DNA from: Clostridia bacterium
GTDB lineage: Bacteria; Bacillota; Clostridia; Oscillospirales; CAG-272
Length of the DNA stretch: 64,000 nt
Assembly (NCBI GenBank): GCA_017464805.1
Contig: JAFTYE010000005.1
Location: 62,001-126,000, forward strand
Direction of reading: 5' to 3'
Of the stretch, positions 1,484 to 15,254 are shown one piece after another. The first letter of the stretch is position 1; each line of letters starts with the position of its first letter. Below the pieces are notes generated by a model. That model was given only the letters and a program-made list of their open reading frames with translations. It was not told where the DNA came from and made no database searches. Both the position numbers and the translations under genes were made by a program.

Positions 1484-2842
1484 TCAATCCTCACCATCAT
1501 CGTCCTCATTTTCATCCTCATCCTCCTCATCGGGGGCGATGACGGTGACGATGGCGGTGTCCATCTGGTGATCGACCACGTTTGTGACACGGATCTGCAG
1601 CTTGTCGGTCGTGACCTCGCAGGTCGTGCCGTCCTCGGGGATCTGACCCAGCGCAGCGAATACCAGACCGCCGAAGGTGTCGAAATCGTCATCCGACAGC
1701 TCCACGCCCAATGTCTCCTCCACCTCGCCGATGGTCGCGGTTCCGCGGATCTGCCAGGTGCCGTCCTCAAGGGCGAGGATCTGCTCGACCTTTTCCTCGG
1801 TCGCCGCCTCCTCGTCGTCTACGTTGCCGACAAGGCGCTCGACCAAGTCGTTGACCGTGACGATGCCCAGTACGCCGCCGTATTCATCCAGCACGATGGC
1901 AATGCGGTTGCGGGTTTTTTTCATGTTGCGGAACAAAAGATCCGCCTTGACTCCCTCGGGTACGAAGTAGGCAGGGCGCACCGCCTCGCGCATCACCGTT
2001 TCGCGGTCATGATTGTCCAGACGGAAATAGTCCTTGGCATTCAGCACACCCACGACGTTATCGACCGTTTCGTGACACACGGGATACATGGTATGGCGGT
2101 TTTCGTGAACCGTCTTGTCCCATTCCTCCATGTCCTCGTCCATCCACAGCATGGCCACGTCGGTGCGGTGGGTCGCAAGCTCCCCTGCCGTCAGATCGTC
2201 AAACTCAAAGATGTTCTGAATAAACTCTTTTTCCTCGTTGTCGATGGCTCCGCTCTGGTTTCCCACGTCCACCATCATCAAAATGTCCTCCTCGGAGGCC
2301 TCCTCCTCGTTGGCGTTCGGATCAATGCCGATGAGGCGCAGAATGCCGTTGGTCGAAACGGTTAGTAGCCATACGATCGGTGCAAAGAGCTTCGCAATAA
2401 AGGAAATAGGGGCGGAGAGTGCCAGCGCAACCGCCTCGGCCTTGCGTTGAGCAACGCGCTTCGGCACCAGCTCGCCGAAGATCAGCGTGATATAAGATAG
2501 GATCAGCGTGACAAGAATCAGCGCGATCGTCTCATATGTTGTCAGATAGGCAGCCGGCGCACCCAGCGAGATCGCCCATTTTGCCAGTGGCTCGGCAAAG
2601 TTCTCGGCCGCAAAGGCACTTCCGAGAAAGCCCGACAGGGTGATCGCCACCTGAATGGTGGATAGAAAGCGTGCGGGTTGCTTGGTCAGACGGGCAAGGC
2701 GCTTCGCACGCTTGTTCCCCTCGTCTGCCATTTTGTTTAATTTCGTGTCGCTGATGCCCAGCACGGCAATTTCCGCGCAGGCAAAAACGGCGTTCAGTGC
2801 AATCAGAAGCAGCTGCAAAAGCAGCATCCATAGGTAATCCAA
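1484..2842 (-). CDS. HlyC/CorC (CNNM-like) family membrane protein with CBS domains
   Basis: The 452-residue protein has an N-terminal DUF21/CNNM membrane domain (about residues 1-190, four hydrophobic segments), a pair of CBS domains (about 205-330), a CorC/HlyC C-terminal domain (about 345-430) and a very acidic tail rich in Asp and Glu. The family is linked to Mg2+ or Co2+ efflux and ion homeostasis; older names such as hemolysin C are misleading. The start chosen is a TTG preceded by GGGAGG six bases away; an ATG at codon 6 has no ribosome site. Transcription starts about 200 bases upstream from a perfect promoter, leaving a structured leader with a terminator-like hairpin, so metal- or ligand-controlled attenuation is plausible. 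Confidence 0.93.
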   Translation of the reverse strand: MDYLWMLLLQLLLIALNAVFACAEIAVLGISDTKLNKMADEGNKRAKRLARLTKQPARFLSTIQVAITLSGFLGSAFAAENFAEPLAKWAISLGAPAAYLTTYETIALILVTLILSYITLIFGELVPKRVAQRKAEAVALALSAPISFIAKLFAPIVWLLTVSTNGILRLIGIDPNANEEEASEEDILMMVDVGNQSGAIDNEEKEFIQNIFEFDDLTAGELATHRTDVAMLWMDEDMEEWDKTVHENRHTMYPVCHETVDNVVGVLNAKDYFRLDNHDRETVMREAVRPAYFVPEGVKADLLFRNMKKTRNRIAIVLDEYGGVLGIVTVNDLVERLVGNVDDEEAATEEKVEQILALEDGTWQIRGTATIGEVEETLGVELSDDDFDTFGGLVFAALGQIPEDGTTCEVTTDKLQIRVTNVVDHQMDTAIVTVIAPDEEDEDENEDDDGED

Positions 2843-3043
2843 AATAAACCTCCCAAGACGGTCGTCTTTACAATTTCAAAAGTCGTAAAAAAGCACAAAA
2901 AGACACAACCCGTCGTTCATTCACGAAAACGCAGGCTATGTCTTACAACTTTTTGAGTATATAAGGGAGGCTTTTCGCTACTTCGCGTGGTACTGTCACC
3001 TTCCATGATTTCTGCAGGCCATCTCCTTCCTTTTGACGGTATT
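2843..3043 (-). promoter_or_regulatory. Long structured 5' leader (candidate riboswitch or attenuator)
   Basis: Between the predicted start of transcription near 3043 and the TTG start of the CorC-family gene lie about 200 untranslated bases. Read on the minus strand, the 5' part (3035-2961) can fold into a domain closed by AAGGAAGG/CCUCCCUU with two small internal hairpins. The next part (2943-2902) forms a stem GACAUAGCC/GGGUUGUGUC followed by UUUUU, as in an intrinsic terminator. A further outer helix pairs 2954-2943 with 2888-2878. I compared the conserved cores I know for M-box, yybP-ykoY, NiCo, fluoride, THF, glycine, c-di-AMP and TPP classes and it fits none of them. Confidence 0.6.
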
Positions 3044-3049
3044 GCGGAC

Positions 3050-3078
3050 ATTATACCATATAATTTTCCCTTTGTCAA
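3050..3078 (-). promoter_or_regulatory. Sigma-A promoter of the CorC-family gene
   Basis: On the minus strand there is TTGACA (3078-3073), a 17-base spacer ending in TGG, and TATAAT (3055-3050). This is a perfect consensus with an extended -10 element. Confidence 0.9.
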
Positions 3079-3141
3079 GCCCCCTTCTTTGTGAAAAGAA
3101 AAGGGGGAGCGCGCCTGCGCTCCCCTTCGGGATCGGTCGGA

Positions 3142-4974
3142 TCAGCCAAGAGGCTCAAACACATCTGCCCCGTGCTTGCACAGCGGGCAGATAAAGTCGG
3201 CGGGCAGCTCCTCGCCCTCATACACGTAGCCGCAGATGGTGCATACGTAGCCCTTTTTCTTCGTATCGGCAGGACTTTCTTTGATATTTTTGTGGTAGTA
3301 GGCATAGGTGGCGGAAGGCTTTTCGGAGAGCACGCGAGCCTCGGTCACCTCGGCAATGAACAGGGTGTGTGTGCCGCAGTCCACCGCCTCCTTCACGCGA
3401 CAGCAAATGACCGTGTTCGCCGTGCCTGCGTAGTACAGAACGCCGTTCTCGGCGCGGGAAAGATCCGTACGCCCCGTGCACTTGTCGGCCTCGCGACCGC
3501 TGACAAAGCCGAAGTCGCGGATCGTGTCAAAGCTCGTTTCCTCGGTCAACACGGACAGGTTGAACACACCCGTGCGCAGGATCATGTCGTGGGTGTGGTT
3601 TTGCTTGTTTACGGAAACGTTCACGGTCTTGGGGGTATCGGTGAGCAGGGCGGCGGTGTTGATCACGCAAGCGTTGTCCTTCTCTCCCTCGCGTGCAAAT
3701 GCAAGGAACAGACCGTAGGAAATGTTGTTAAAGGCGGCGGACTCTATCTCACCACTGGTGGGAAGGGAGCAGGTCGGGCAAATGTCGGCCGCGATCGTAT
3801 CCGCCAGGGCAAAGATCTCTTGCTCCTCACCTGCCTGTAAGGCGGAACGAACGGTCACGGTGTCCGAAAGGAAGGTGATGTCACGGCATCCTTCCAGTAT
3901 CTCGCGCATGCCCTTGCCAGCCGAAGGTGCCCAGGAGCCGTTTTCGATCAGCGAAACGGTGCGGCGGGAGAGGTTGTGCGCCGCCAGATCCCGCAGCAGC
4001 TCCTCCATCGAGATGAACACGCCTGCGTTGTAGGTGGTGGAGGCAAAGACCAGATGACTGTATTGGAATGCGGCCGCCACGATCTCGGAGGCGGGGGTCA
4101 CCGACACGTCAAACACCGTCACGGGTACACCTTGCTCGGAAAGTCGGGTGGCAAGAATTTCGGCGGCTACGGCAGTGTTGCCGTACACCGATGCGTAAGC
4201 GATCATCACCCCGCGCACCTCGGGCGTATAGGTGCTCCACTTTTGATACTTTTCCACGTAGGACGCGATATCCTTGCGCCATACAAAGCCGTGGAGAGGA
4301 CAGAGCAGATCGATCGCAAGGGGTGCGGCCTTTTTTAAGAGAGCCTGCACCTGTGCGCCGTATTTGCCCACGATGTTGCAGTAGTAGCGGCGCGCCTCGT
4401 CCAGATAGTCACGCATGAAATCCACCTCATCGGCAAACAGCGCACCGTTAAGGGCCCCGAAGGTGCCGAATGCGTCCGCCGAAAAGAGGATGTGCTCGCT
4501 TTCCTCATACGCCACCATAACCTCGGGCCAGTGTACCATCGGTGCCATCACGAAGTGCAGGGTATGCTTGCCAAGCGACAGGGTGTCGCCCTCCTTCACC
4601 AGCACCACGCGGGAGCGGTCCTGCGGGCCGAAGAAACGCTCCATCATCGCAAGGATCTTCTGATTGCAGACCACCTTCGCCTCGGGATGGCGGGAAAGCA
4701 GGTCGGCCAATGTGGCCGAATGATCGGGCTCCATGTGAAGCACGACCACGTAGTCAAGCGGCTCACCGCCGAGTGTGTGCTCCACATTGGCGAAAAATAC
4801 GCTTGCCACGGCGCGGTCTACCGTATCAAACAACACATTCTTTTCGTCACGGAGTAGGTAAGAGTTGTAGGAAACACCGCGGGGAACGGAGTAGACTCCC
4901 TCAAACATGGCCAGGCGACGGTCGTTTGCACCCACCCAGGTCAGGGACTCGTTGATCTTTCTTGTGCAGTACAT
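3142..4974 (-). CDS. Flavodiiron protein with flavin-reductase and rubredoxin domains
   Basis: The 610-residue cytosolic enzyme reduces O2 to water and/or NO to N2O, protecting anaerobes. The order of domains is a metallo-beta-lactamase-like diiron domain (1-250, with the ligand motif HMEPDH at 80-85), flavodoxin (about 255-395), a flavin-reductase-like FMN domain (about 410-560) and a C-terminal rubredoxin with CTICGYVYEG and CPLCKHG cysteine pairs. Having both reductase and rubredoxin on one chain means electrons may pass from NAD(P)H to the diiron site without separate partners. The ATG at 4974 has AGGAGAG upstream; the in-frame extension before it has no ribosome site. It is transcribed divergently from the acyltransferase gene. 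Confidence 0.95.
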   Translation of the reverse strand: MYCTRKINESLTWVGANDRRLAMFEGVYSVPRGVSYNSYLLRDEKNVLFDTVDRAVASVFFANVEHTLGGEPLDYVVVLHMEPDHSATLADLLSRHPEAKVVCNQKILAMMERFFGPQDRSRVVLVKEGDTLSLGKHTLHFVMAPMVHWPEVMVAYEESEHILFSADAFGTFGALNGALFADEVDFMRDYLDEARRYYCNIVGKYGAQVQALLKKAAPLAIDLLCPLHGFVWRKDIASYVEKYQKWSTYTPEVRGVMIAYASVYGNTAVAAEILATRLSEQGVPVTVFDVSVTPASEIVAAAFQYSHLVFASTTYNAGVFISMEELLRDLAAHNLSRRTVSLIENGSWAPSAGKGMREILEGCRDITFLSDTVTVRSALQAGEEQEIFALADTIAADICPTCSLPTSGEIESAAFNNISYGLFLAFAREGEKDNACVINTAALLTDTPKTVNVSVNKQNHTHDMILRTGVFNLSVLTEETSFDTIRDFGFVSGREADKCTGRTDLSRAENGVLYYAGTANTVICCRVKEAVDCGTHTLFIAEVTEARVLSEKPSATYAYYHKNIKESPADTKKKGYVCTICGYVYEGEELPADFICPLCKHGADVFEPLG

Positions 4975-7646: not shown

Positions 7647-7703
7647 GAAGACATTTACCCGAATAGGATAATAAAGAATAAAACCGCAGGAAAGGAACGC
7701 GTG

Positions 7704-7955
7704 ATGAATGGTATGACACTTTCGGATATGAAGCCGGGGGAGAGGGCAACGGTCATTTCTCTTGTCGGGGAAACGGGCATGCGCCGCCGACTTCTGGACA
7801 TCGGGCTTGTGGAAAATGCAGTGGTCGAATGCGTGGGTATCTCCCCCCTCGGCGATCCGCTTGCTTTTCGTATTTTGGGGGCGGTAATCGCTATCCGACG
7901 CCGTGACGGCCGCGCCGTTACCGTGCAAAAAAAGGGGGTGGCAGCGTGGGCATGA
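7704..7955 (+). CDS. feoA: Ferrous iron transport protein A
   Basis: An 83-residue SH3-like FeoA protein (MTLSDMKPGERATV...MRRRLLDIGL...) that supports the FeoB iron transporter at the membrane. An AAAGGA ribosome site at 7691-7696 favours the ATG at 7704 over the GTG one codon earlier. The gene overlaps the start of feoB by about 10 bases. No clear promoter consensus was found in the 60 bases upstream. Confidence 0.93.
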   Translation: MNGMTLSDMKPGERATVISLVGETGMRRRLLDIGLVENAVVECVGISPLGDPLAFRILGAVIAIRRRDGRAVTVQKKGVAAWA

Positions 7956-10051
7956 CGGGAACGCCGCTCGGACGGCGCGGTACGAAGGGAAAGGCCGGTG
8001 CCCCAACAGATGAGATCACCGTCACTCTGGCGGGGAACCCAAACGTCGGCAAAAGCACGCTCTTTAACGCTTTGACGGGCCTTGATCAGCATACGGGTAA
8101 TTGGCCCGGCAAAACCGTTGCCTCGGCGGACGGTCGACTTCGCTATCGGGGGAAAACCTATCGTCTTGTGGATACCCCCGGTACCTATTCGCTTGCCGCA
8201 CGCTCCCCCGAGGAGGAGGTCACGCGCGACTTCCTTTGCTACGGGGATGCCAATGTGACGGTAGTGGTTTGCGACGCGACCTGTCTTGCGCGAAATTTAC
8301 ATCTCGTTTTGCAGATCCTTGCCTTTTCGCCGCGTGCGGTGGTCTGCATCAACCTCATGGACGAGGCGGCGCGTCGGGGCATCGCCCCCGACCTTGATGC
8401 CCTTTCGCACCGCCTCGGCGTGCCCGTGGTGGGTACGGTCGCGCGGCGTAAAAAAACGCTCGCCGCCTTGATGGAGGCGGTGGAAAAGGTGGCGGCAGGC
8501 GATGCCCCCGCACTGCCCGCGCTCCCTTATCCCGCGTGGCTCACGGCCGAGCAGGCAACCCTCGCCACGCTCCTTGCACGGGTGTTGGATTCCATCCGCG
8601 CACAGGCGTTGGTCCCCTATCTGCTTTCGGGGGATGCCCCTATGCCCCCCGCGCTTGCGGGGGATGATACCGTCTTGCGCGCTCTTGCCGAGGCAAAGGC
8701 ACGTCTGGCCGCTGCGGGGCATGACGAGGAAGACTGTCACGAGGCCATCGCCCTTGCCCTTGCAGAGAAAAGCGGGGAGCTGTATGCTGCCACTGTGACC
8801 CAGAAAAACGAAGCGCGCGCTGATCGTGACCGCCGCCTTGACCGCTTCTTCACAGGGCGGCGAACCGCCTATCCCGTGATGCTTTTGCTCCTGCTTGCCA
8901 TTCTTTTCCTGACTATCGTGGGGGCAAACTATCCCTCGGCTTGGCTGTCGGCGGGGCTTTCGCGTCTGCTTGACGGCATGGCCGCCCTCTTGATTTCCTT
9001 ACATGCGCCGCCGTGGCTGTACGGCGCGTTGATAGACGGTGTTTTCTGCGTTTTGTTCCGTGTGGTGGCGGTCATGCTGCCGCCCATGGCCATCTTCTTT
9101 CCGCTTTTCACGCTGCTTGAGGATAGCGGTTACCTGCCGCGCATCGCCTACAACCTCGACCGCCCCTTCTGCGCCTGCCGCGCCTGCGGTAAGCAGGCCC
9201 TTACCATGTGCATGGGCTTCGGATGCAACGCGGCAGGGGTGGTCGGATGCCGCATCATCGACTCGCCGCGCGAGCGGTTGCTTGCGATCCTGACCAATAG
9301 CCTTGTTCCTTGTAACGGTCGTTTCCCCGCTCTGCTTTCACTCATTGCCATGTTCTTTATCGGTGCGACGGGGGGGTTTACGGCATCCTTGCTTTCCGCT
9401 GTCATCCTTACACTTTTTCTGCTCCTTGGCATCGGTGCCACTTTTCTCGCCACCTACCTGCTCTCCCACACGCTCCTGCGCGGTGAGCCATCCTCCTTTA
9501 CCCTGGAAATGTCCCCCTACCGCCGTCCGCAGGTCGGACAGGTGCTCGTCCGTTCGCTTCTTGACCGTACGCTGTCCGTGTTGTGGCGCGCGGTGGCGGT
9601 GGCCGCCCCTGCGGGGCTTCTCATCTGGCTGCTTGCTAATCTCTCGTTCGGGGGCGCGTCGGTTCTTGCCCATTTGGCCGCCTTCCTTGATCCCCTTGGC
9701 TCGCTCCTCGGCATGGATGGGGTGATCCTGCTTGCCTTTATCCTCGGCTTGCCTGCGAATGAGATCGTTTTGCCGCTTGCCGTGATGTTGTATACCGCGG
9801 CGGGGAGCCCCGTGGAACCGGAAAGCGTGGGCGAGATGCACGCTTTGCTCGTGGCGAATGGCTGGACGGTCACGACTGCCCTTTGCACGGCTGTCTTTTT
9901 CCTCTTTCATTGGCCCTGCTCTACCACCCTCTTGTCGGTGAAGCGGGAAACGGGGAAATGGCGGTACGCCGCCGTGGCTGCTGTCCTGCCAACTCTCCTC
10001 GGCGCTCTTTTGTGTGTGCTAATCGCCGCCGCAGGCCGTCTGTTTCTATAA
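7946..10051 (+). CDS. feoB: Ferrous iron transporter B
   Basis: A 701-residue Fe(II) uptake protein. It has an N-terminal G domain with P-loop GNPNVGKS and DTPGTYSL switch motif, a helical GDI-like region, then two Gate domains with about eight membrane helices. The ACRACGKQALTMCMGFGCNA cysteine cluster typical of FeoB lies near residue 410. A GTG at 7946 is preceded by GGGGGTGG; an ATG two codons later is a possible alternative. Translation is probably coupled to feoA. A small FeoC-type gene is absent. Confidence 0.96.
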   Translation: MGMTGTPLGRRGTKGKAGAPTDEITVTLAGNPNVGKSTLFNALTGLDQHTGNWPGKTVASADGRLRYRGKTYRLVDTPGTYSLAARSPEEEVTRDFLCYGDANVTVVVCDATCLARNLHLVLQILAFSPRAVVCINLMDEAARRGIAPDLDALSHRLGVPVVGTVARRKKTLAALMEAVEKVAAGDAPALPALPYPAWLTAEQATLATLLARVLDSIRAQALVPYLLSGDAPMPPALAGDDTVLRALAEAKARLAAAGHDEEDCHEAIALALAEKSGELYAATVTQKNEARADRDRRLDRFFTGRRTAYPVMLLLLLAILFLTIVGANYPSAWLSAGLSRLLDGMAALLISLHAPPWLYGALIDGVFCVLFRVVAVMLPPMAIFFPLFTLLEDSGYLPRIAYNLDRPFCACRACGKQALTMCMGFGCNAAGVVGCRIIDSPRERLLAILTNSLVPCNGRFPALLSLIAMFFIGATGGFTASLLSAVILTLFLLLGIGATFLATYLLSHTLLRGEPSSFTLEMSPYRRPQVGQVLVRSLLDRTLSVLWRAVAVAAPAGLLIWLLANLSFGGASVLAHLAAFLDPLGSLLGMDGVILLAFILGLPANEIVLPLAVMLYTAAGSPVEPESVGEMHALLVANGWTVTTALCTAVFFLFHWPCSTTLLSVKRETGKWRYAAVAAVLPTLLGALLCVLIAAAGRLFL

Positions 10052-13793: not shown

Positions 13794-13820
13794 GAGAAAA
13801 GGCGGCACCGAAGTGCCGCC
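13794..13820 (-). terminator. Terminator of rnpB
   Basis: Stem GGCGGCAC-TTCG-GTGCCGCC followed by TTTTCTC on the minus strand, directly after the RNase P RNA. Confidence 0.9.
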
Positions 13821-13821
13821 T

Positions 13822-14205
13822 GCAACCGCGCCTGTAAGCCGGGTTCTGTGAACACGCGTGCGCGTGAGCCGCAATCATCTATCTTCACTGCCGATCTCTC
13901 GACAGTTCAGGGCTCTCGCCCCTGCCACCCGAGGGAAAACGGCGGGCAGCCGCATGCCTTTCGGCATTCCCACATACGGTGTTGCTTCGGATAGGGTTTA
14001 CATTTGCCCCGCAGTTACCTGCACGGCCGGTGAGCTCTTACCTCGCCTTTCCATCCTTACCGCTTGCGCGGCGGTTTATTTCTGTTGCACTTTCCCTGGG
14101 GTCACCCCCGGCGGACGTTATCCGTTATCCTGCCCTATGAAGCCCGGACTTTCCTCACGATACGACCTTTCGGCATGATATCGCGCGATTGCGCCGCCCG
14201 GTTGC
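13822..14205 (-). ncRNA. rnpB: RNase P RNA (bacterial type)
   Basis: The catalytic RNA that matures tRNA 5' ends. The 3' part reads ACAGAACCCGGCUUACAGGC and the 5' part contains GAGGAAAGUCCGGGCU, both universal landmarks. The ends pair (GCAACCG at the 5' end with CGGUUGC at the 3' end) to give helix P1, which sets the limits at about 384 bases. It has its own promoter and terminator. The size and P-helix pattern look like the ancestral A type, but I did not fold it fully. Confidence 0.96.
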
Positions 14206-15119: not shown

Positions 15120-15142
15120 ATCTATCCCGCAGCGCGCTTGCG

Positions 15143-15226
15143 GCAAGTTCTTCCTACGACGGTATTATCCGTATCAGGTTAAAGGGTTTGGGAGATCTCC
15201 CATCTCAGCATGAAGCACCCCTGACT
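15143..15226 (-). promoter_or_regulatory. TPP riboswitch (THI element)
   Basis: The minus-strand RNA contains the signature blocks GGGGUGC, CUGAGA and ACCUGAUACGGAUAAU followed by CGUAGGAA, which define the thiamine pyrophosphate aptamer. It sits directly before a terminator hairpin and the thiT gene, so TPP binding should switch thiT off. Confidence 0.96.
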
Positions 15227-15254
15227 CGATTATTCAGTTCTGTGGCTTGTCCTC

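What the first reader, a model, noticed from the sequence alone, without database searches (positions are those of the whole stretch)
2843..3078. Unclassified structured leader RNA upstream of a CorC/CNNM-type gene
A perfect extended-minus-10 promoter starts a 200-base leader. Its 5' domain folds on itself, and its 3' domain forms a terminator-like hairpin with a U run plus an overlapping outer helix. That is the architecture of a riboswitch with an expression platform, ahead of an ion-homeostasis gene. The cores of the classes I know do not fit. A metal- or ion-sensing element is the natural hypothesis.
Basis: partly seen in the sequence, partly recalled or inferred. Interest (0 to 1): 0.75.

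Follow-up and report, generated by a model that had tools for sequence, protein, structure and literature searches.

The report
Acidic leader peptide before magnesium exporter
The stretch before this ion-exporter gene is probably not a riboswitch but a tiny gene for an acidic peptide that overlaps a transcription stop signal, a layout seen before the same kind of exporter in many gut bacteria and likely a way for ribosomes to sense plentiful magnesium.

Summary
The promoter, ~200-nt leader, terminator and outer helix are real, on the minus strand before a CNNM/CorC gene. No Rfam family fits. The 5' domain is not a conserved aptamer: it encodes MEGDSTTRSSEKPPLYTQKVVRHSLRFRE (3006-2917), whose last codons form the terminator's 5' arm. 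Orthologues keep both ends and the frame; 14 of 80 named ones share, by eye, the longer motif MDDGDS..PPLY..HSLxLRE. Of 245 CorC loci, 101 have an upstream ORF that can be picked by ribosome-binding site and terminator position alone. These carry a mean of 3.34 Asp/Glu in residues 2-10, against 0.24-0.25 in the other frames; 88 of 101 meet an acidic/proline rule. Of 30 window genes only CorC has such an ORF. Acidic N-termini destabilise ribosomes in enterobacterial MgtL and MgtQ. Most likely: when Mg2+ (or total cation) is high, ribosomes finish the leader, block the terminator and the exporter is made; when low, they drop off and transcription stops. That is MgtL's mirror image. Shown by comparison: peptide and architecture. 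Inferred: translation, Mg2+ response, sign. New variant of a known kind.

The parts
3050..3078 (-). promoter, TTGACA-17-TATAAT with extended -10
   Evidence: transcription start not mapped
3104..3125 (-). terminator-like site of the preceding gene (ODP/flavin reductase/rubredoxin-type protein, 3142-4974)
3023..3028 (-). Shine-Dalgarno AAGGAG of the leader ORF; 16 nt before its ATG, a long spacing also seen in G028, G043, G135 and L131
2917..3006 (-). leader ORF MEGDSTTRSSEKPPLYTQKVVRHSLRFRE, stop included
   Evidence: conserved in G028, G043, G135 and named orthologues
2995..3003 (-). codons Glu2-Gly3-Asp4: proposed ribosome-destabilising part
   Evidence: by position and analogy with MgtL (E2, D4) and MgtQ (D2, E5)
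2965..2970 (-). CCUCCC in the Pro-Pro codons; can pair with the CorC Shine-Dalgarno
2887..2944 (-). intrinsic terminator: hairpin (core arms 2942-2934 and 2910-2902) and U tract 2901-2887; the leader ORF ends inside it
2849..2854 (-). Shine-Dalgarno GGGAGG of CorC
1484..2842 (-). CNNM/CorC-type gene (TTG start), 452 aa

Best explanation
A leader-peptide attenuator for a CNNM/CorC exporter. The promoter makes an mRNA that first offers a short ORF with acidic (in relatives also Pro-containing) codons right after the start. Ribosomes with enough Mg2+ (or total cation, polyamines included) pass these codons, reach the 3' half of the ORF and sit on the 5' arm of the intrinsic terminator, so RNA polymerase reads on and the exporter is made. 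When Mg2+ is low the young nascent chain destabilises the ribosome (intrinsic ribosome destabilisation, IRD), it drops off at about codons 2-8, the terminator forms and the exporter is not made. In the window and some relatives a CCUCC in the Pro-Pro codons can also hide the exporter's ribosome-binding site. Shown by comparison: the ORF, its acidic N-terminus, its overlap with the terminator, its link to CorC. Inferred: that it is translated, that low Mg2+ aborts it, and the ON-at-high-Mg2+ sign.
For: ORF ends, frame and motif kept in G028, G043 and G135 although lengths differ (29-31 codons). Same long motif by eye in 14 of 80 named orthologues. Composition-blind choice: 101 ORFs, mean 3.34 D/E in residues 2-10 against 0.24 and 0.25 in the other two frames; 88 of 101 meet the rule. 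Rule met in 53 of 80 named, 41 of 62 genus and 26 of 108 order loci, against shuffle means 1.8, 1.6 and 2.2 with maximum 5. Specific: 24 of 28 hits of an acidic-start pattern in 69 genus genomes are short ORFs just before CorC, the other 4 begin or lie in longer ORFs of 88-505 aa; the reversed-pattern control gave 2 hits. In the window 1 of 30 genes tested (this one) has such an ORF; in the named loci 1 of 44 other genes. Terminators: 94 of 119 loci with the ORF, 33 of 129 without (Fisher 1e-17, loci not independent); the stop lies -15 to +45 nt of the hairpin base in 74 of 93, beyond the hairpin in 18, at -16 in 1. A mask for a ribosome with P site at codon 20 or 24 abolishes the window's terminator, at codons 4, 7 and 14 it does not. 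In L270 and L300 the motif is fused to CorC's own N-terminus. Papers (passages): MgtL EPDP (PMC11282234), MgtQ D2/E5 (PMC8092293), Salmonella corC higher in 10 mM Mg2+ and E. coli CorC N-terminus reported to contain IRD (PMC12421838).
Against: No expression, ribosome or Mg2+ data. The window peptide has only two acidic residues in positions 2-10 (Glu2, Asp4) and no MgtL-like alternating prolines. Codon counts do not show purifying selection: synonymous/nonsynonymous codon changes are 5/7 (window-G028), 3/3 (G028-G043), 3/12 (window-G135). 27 of 80 named and 82 of 108 order loci miss the rule. G008, G005 and G057 orthologues (L035-L037) have Pro-type leaders with no terminator found. In the masked folds a ribosome at codons 20-29 frees the terminator arm but leaves the CorC ribosome-binding site paired, and at codon 29 the terminator returns to 0.50, so the two layers do not open together for one ribosome. 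Loose transcription-translation coupling, recalled from B. subtilis work, would weaken any such attenuator. The exporter may move polyamines: best NCBIfam match is PaeA, 241.5 bits, under its cut-off of 500.
Confidence: 0.68

Rival explanations
1. Same acidic leader peptide and IRD, but opposite sign: early drop-off or stalling at low Mg2+ allows an alternative fold that prevents termination, so CorC is made when Mg2+ is low, as for mgtA and mgtB.
For: The sign of the known cases, MgtL and MgtQ.
Against: No antiterminator fold was seen in the consensus of four orthologues; the terminator forms whenever no ribosome is near it, and also with a ribosome at codons 4-14. The stop codon sits in or after the hairpin's 5' arm in 92 of 93 loci with both parts, 1 being at -16. 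CorC-type proteins are linked to Mg2+ export and high Mg2+ (PMC12421838, PMC6711546 passages).
Confidence: 0.12
2. A true riboswitch or metal-binding RNA aptamer of a new class in the 5' domain.
For: Stable fold (z -3.66); near-invariant stretch around AAGGAGATGG...GGTGACAGTA in three close relatives; strong codon preference at Asp-Ser (AGT in 51 of 71 against 0.11 background), which a peptide alone does not explain.
Against: No Rfam hit at gathering score; at E up to 10 only KCNQ1OT1_1 at 13.6 bits against a cut-off of 70. No covariation in the 5' domain. The conserved feature is acidic residues in one frame, spelled with differing codons and lengths.
Confidence: 0.08
3. Amino-acid type attenuator: runs of Asp (or Pro, Cys, Asn) codons sense a charged tRNA.
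For: Asp is 30% of residues 2-12 in the 120 selected leaders, Glu 4%.
Against: Some CorC leaders swap Asp runs for Asp-Pro motifs such as MDDSPYPERC or MDPLPRS. The downstream gene is a CNNM transporter, not Asp metabolism. Known attenuators let a stall favour an antiterminator; none was seen.
Confidence: 0.04
4. The Asp-rich nascent chain binds Mg2+ or another cation directly (DxDxD-like loops) and so stalls or releases the ribosome.
For: Spacings such as MDDDADADTC and MDGDTDGDTC; Asp strongly preferred over Glu.
Against: Window and Pro-type leaders lack such loops; no precedent seen in the papers searched.
Confidence: 0.05

Closest known systems
MgtL leader peptide of mgtA (E. coli, Salmonella)
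   Same: Short acidic ORF before an Mg2+ transport gene; E2 and D4, as in the window's MEGD; ribosome drop-off at low Mg2+ is the sensor (PMC11282234 passages).
   Different: MgtL controls an importer through a Rho site and turns it on at low Mg2+; here an exporter-type gene, an intrinsic terminator overlapping the ORF, and by inference on at high Mg2+. No sequence homology claimed.
MgtQ ORF between mgtC and mgtB (Salmonella)
   Same: Very short ORF needing acidic residues (D2, E5); hides or frees the downstream ribosome-binding site (PMC8092293 passages).
   Different: Importer, translational control only, aborted translation raises expression.
YoaL leader of mgpA/yoaE and the IRD N-terminus of E. 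coli CorC
   Same: A leader peptide proposed, untested, to raise a CorC-domain protein at high Mg2+; IRD in CorC's own N-terminus (PMC12421838 passage, citing work I could not open).
   Different: Enterobacteria; MgpA is a TerC-CorC protein; no intrinsic terminator described in the passage.
M-box (ykoK) Mg2+ riboswitch, RF00380
   Same: RNA-based Mg2+ control before a transporter in Firmicutes.
   Different: No hit in the window at gathering score and 0 of 69 genus genomes; binds Mg2+ as RNA.
pyrBI/ampC-type attenuators (recalled)
   Same: Leader ORF runs into the terminator; the ribosome itself blocks it.
   Different: They sense nucleotide or growth state, not the stability of the ribosome on an acidic chain.

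Membership tests
Any Rfam 15 RNA family | score at or above gathering cut-off | tested here: not met
   for the window, for ten related loci (2 tRNAs only)
M-box riboswitch RF00380 | covariance model match in this genus | tested here: not met
   0 of 69 genomes; positive in 2 of 14 controls (stricter filters used)
IRD leader peptides (MgtL, MgtQ kind) | short ORF with ribosome-binding site before an Mg2+ transport gene | tested here: met
   by sequence only
IRD leader peptides (MgtL, MgtQ kind) | acidic residues, with or without Pro, in the first codons | tested here: met
   window Glu2, Asp4; relatives
IRD leader peptides (MgtL, MgtQ kind) | ribosome drop-off that depends on Mg2+ | not testable with these tools
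   needs translation assays
IRD leader peptides (MgtL, MgtQ kind) | controls an importer and turns it on at low Mg2+ | tested here: inconclusive
   gene is CNNM/CorC, exporter-type by family; sign inferred only
MgtL as a homologous family | common descent with enterobacterial mgtL | not tested
   no alignment made; similarity is in composition and position
Ribosome-dependent attenuator with intrinsic terminator | leader ORF ends in or past the terminator 5' arm | tested here: met
   window: stop 28 nt inside the hairpin; 92 of 93 relatives from -15 nt onward, 1 at -16
Amino-acid (his/trp type) attenuator | alternative antiterminator fold | tested here: inconclusive
   none in the consensus of four
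CNNM/CorC exporter family | CNNM, CBS and CorC_HlyC domains | tested here: met
   PDB relatives CorB/CorC; no NCBIfam model above its cut-off

The most novel reading that the evidence does not exclude
A previously undescribed, clostridia-wide class of regulatory leader peptides in which the ribosome is the sensor of high Mg2+ or total cation: it turns CNNM/CorC exporters ON by finishing an acidic leader that overlaps an intrinsic terminator, the mirror image of MgtL. The acidic motif can sit in the leader or be fused to the exporter's own N-terminus, and may stand in for the M-box, of which no copy was found in this genus.
Probability: 0.5. Interest if true: 0.85.

Novelty: new variant of a known kind. 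Interest (0 to 1): 0.7.

Why it matters
How bacteria sense too much Mg2+ and switch on export is open; the 2025 Salmonella paper calls the regulation of its two CorC-domain genes unclear (PMC12421838 passage). Here is a compact, testable element found before such genes in many uncultured and some cultured clostridia. If right, the physics that turns importers on at low Mg2+ in enterobacteria also turns exporters on at high Mg2+ in clostridia, with the ribosome as gauge. It also warns that stable, unclassified 'riboswitch-like' leaders can be leader peptides.

Tried and rejected
Riboswitch: Rfam at gathering and at E 10, ten relatives, consensus fold; rejected as the main reading. Alternative frames of the leader: MACRNHGR (ATG too close to the Shine-Dalgarno) and an open CTG frame were seen in the sequence; only the MEGD frame keeps its ends in G135. 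DNA search of 197 relatives with the leader: two strong hits, G043 and G028, and G135 at 1e-6; 146 of 197 genomes 'match' at E up to 1, nearly all of it short U-tract or chance pieces. Strict acidic pattern: 0 of 391 class genomes, 1 of 156 family genomes, of which 4 were of the genus; these patterns follow one sub-type only. Phylum-wide CNNM loci: 116 of 249 genomes had a match; I read by eye the upstreams of the 29 of 30 fetched loci that the script could frame (L111 failed) and saw no such leader. Phylum-wide absence is therefore only a sample. My first tandem-gene filter missed some tandem genes and mislabelled others, so I rest. Counts include a few likely spurious ORFs (for example L066, L239, L338) and miss real leaders with weak ribosome-binding sites (for example L283, L329). 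The sets overlap: L125 and L274 are the same locus (identical peptide, contig length 32,023). The order set is 109 of the places listed; the list was cut by the tool, three partial places (G195, G997, G998) and the tail were not taken.

Full report
WHAT IS THERE. The finding lies on the minus strand. A perfect TTGACA-17-TATAAT promoter (3078-3050) follows the terminator-like site of the preceding gene (3125-3104). About 200 nt later begins a CNNM + CBS + CorC_HlyC protein (2842-1484), related to CorB/CorC structures. The leader folds more stably than 200 of 200 shuffles. Rfam gives nothing at gathering score and only a KCNQ1OT1_1 match of 13.6 bits against a cut-off of 70 at E up to 10.

THE LEADER IS CODING. 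From 3006 to 2917 runs an ORF with a Shine-Dalgarno 16 nt upstream: MEGDSTTRSSEKPPLYTQKVVRHSLRFRE. G028, G043 (CorC 71% identical) and G135 (62%) have ORFs of 30, 31 and 30 codons with the same start, the same end and MxxGDS...KPP...(R/G)H(S/G)L..RE. Synonymous changes do not outnumber nonsynonymous ones (5/7, 3/3, 3/12), so the case rests on frame, ends and composition. In 80 named orthologues (the best 80 of 563) I count by eye 14 with the long motif, for example MDDGDSNPENPPLYQKSVFAKRRLHLRM (L322) and MDDGDSTGGETPPLSYIQSFIGRSLCLRE (L291, within a longer listed ORF). In the window's genus the more distant CorC copies carry MDDADADTC-type leaders.

NOT CHANCE, AND IN ONE FRAME. With a rule set beforehand for that call (Shine-Dalgarno of 4 or more, 10-60 codons, at least 3 D/E in residues 2-10, or at least 2 D/E and 2 Pro in 2-14) 53 of 80 named, 41 of 62 genus and 26 of 108 order loci pass; 100 dinucleotide shuffles give means of 1.8, 1.6 and 2.2 and a maximum of 5 each. 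To avoid picking acidic ORFs for being acidic, I chose ORFs by ribosome-binding site and position against the terminator only: of 245 loci, 124 have a terminator within 200 nt, 101 a qualifying ORF, and 88 of these pass the acidic rule. Mean D/E in residues 2-10 is 3.34, against 0.24 and 0.25 in the other frames; 4 of 101 have fewer than 2. Loci are related, MAG-heavy and include one duplicate (L125/L274).

SPECIFIC TO CORC. An acidic-start pattern in 69 genus genomes hit 28 times: 24 are short ORFs just before CorC (23 by coordinates, G059 by reading), 4 begin or lie in longer ORFs of 88-505 aa; the reversed pattern hit 2 times. Of 30 window genes with at least 100 nt of upstream space, only this CorC has a rule-meeting ORF; in the named loci 1 of 44 non-CorC genes does.

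TIED TO A TERMINATOR. 94 of 119 loci with the ORF have a terminator within 200 nt, 33 of 129 without (Fisher 1e-17, not independent). In 93 loci with both, the stop lies from -15 to +45 nt of the hairpin base in 74, beyond the hairpin in 18 and at -16 in 1. In the window the stop is 28 nt inside the hairpin. In the consensus fold, pairs kept through changes on both sides are found in the terminator (2), the outer helix (1) and a small hairpin before the CorC ribosome-binding site (3), none in the 5' domain.

HOW IT COULD WORK. With ribosome-sized masks, a P site at codons 4, 7 or 14 leaves the terminator at probability 1.00, at codons 20 and 24 it is 0.00, at codon 29 0.50. So a ribosome that gets past the first half of the ORF prevents termination, one that drops off early does not. 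Acidic N-termini are known to make ribosomes drop off at low Mg2+: MgtL EPDP (PMC11282234, passages) and MgtQ with D2 and E5 (PMC8092293, passages); the window has E2 and D4. Salmonella corC rises in 10 mM Mg2+, and E. coli CorC's N-terminus is reported to hold such a sequence (PMC12421838, passages). S. aureus MpfA, a CNNM relative, is linked to export (PMC6711546, passages). The simplest reading is ON at high Mg2+, OFF at low. Polyamines may count too: PaeA is the best, sub-threshold, NCBIfam match.

A SECOND LAYER. The Pro-Pro codons of the window read CCUCCC and pair with the exporter's GGGAGG in the predicted fold. In 19 rows with Pro-Pro at residues 9-20, I set aside L246 and L153 as chance; of the other 17, 16 read CCTCC (15 of 16 without the duplicate), while CCT is 0.19 of Pro codons in the CorC genes. 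13 of those 16 have GGAGG before CorC. This looks like hiding of the ribosome-binding site, but the masks show a ribosome at codons 20-29 does not open it, so how the layers combine is unsolved.

MOTIF ON THE EXPORTER ITSELF. In L270 and L300 the acidic motif runs directly into CorC (MDDGDSNTGDEPP..., MDSDSSVPDPS...), and 12 of 109 order loci have CorC N-termini that meet the rule, such as MDPDPGP and MPDDPS (2 of 80 named, 0 of 63 genus). This favours a peptide-level role.

LIMITS. Nothing shows translation or Mg2+ response. 27 of 80 and 82 of 108 loci miss the rule. Nearest paralogous leaders in G008, G005 and G057 are Pro-type (MDTIPRS, MDPLPRS, MDTLPR) without a found terminator. A sample of 29 phylum-wide upstreams read by eye showed none. 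Six literature searches listed no paper on a leader peptide before CNNM/CorC in Firmicutes; a 2010 attenuator survey does not mention CorC or hemolysin in its main text (PMC2965389, term search).

Noticed in passing
window 2995-2992 and 71 leaders in related loci: At the Asp-Ser of these leaders Ser is spelled AGT in 51 of 71 cases, against 0.11 of Ser codons in the CorC genes. A peptide-only role does not explain this.
   Followed up: partly
genus of the window, 69 genomes: No M-box Mg2+ riboswitch in any of 69 genomes, with 2 of 14 control genomes positive.
   Followed up: partly
L207, L213-L215, L145-L147 and others: CorC proteins whose own N-terminus is MDPDP- or MPDDPS-like, reminiscent of MgtL's EPDP.
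   Followed up: partly
L036, L195, L203, L205: A second leader type, MDPLPRS, before CorC homologues; a terminator overlaps it only in L203.
   Followed up: no
window 15133-15232 (-): TPP riboswitch (68.2 bits).
   Followed up: no
window 13819-14204 (-): Bacterial RNase P RNA, class A.
   Followed up: no
window 3142-4974 (-): Fusion of ODP-type metallo-beta-lactamase, flavodoxin, flavin reductase and rubredoxin-like domains just upstream.
   Followed up: no
window 7701-10051 (+): Two ORFs that read like FeoA and FeoB iron uptake proteins (by eye, no profile search).
   Followed up: no
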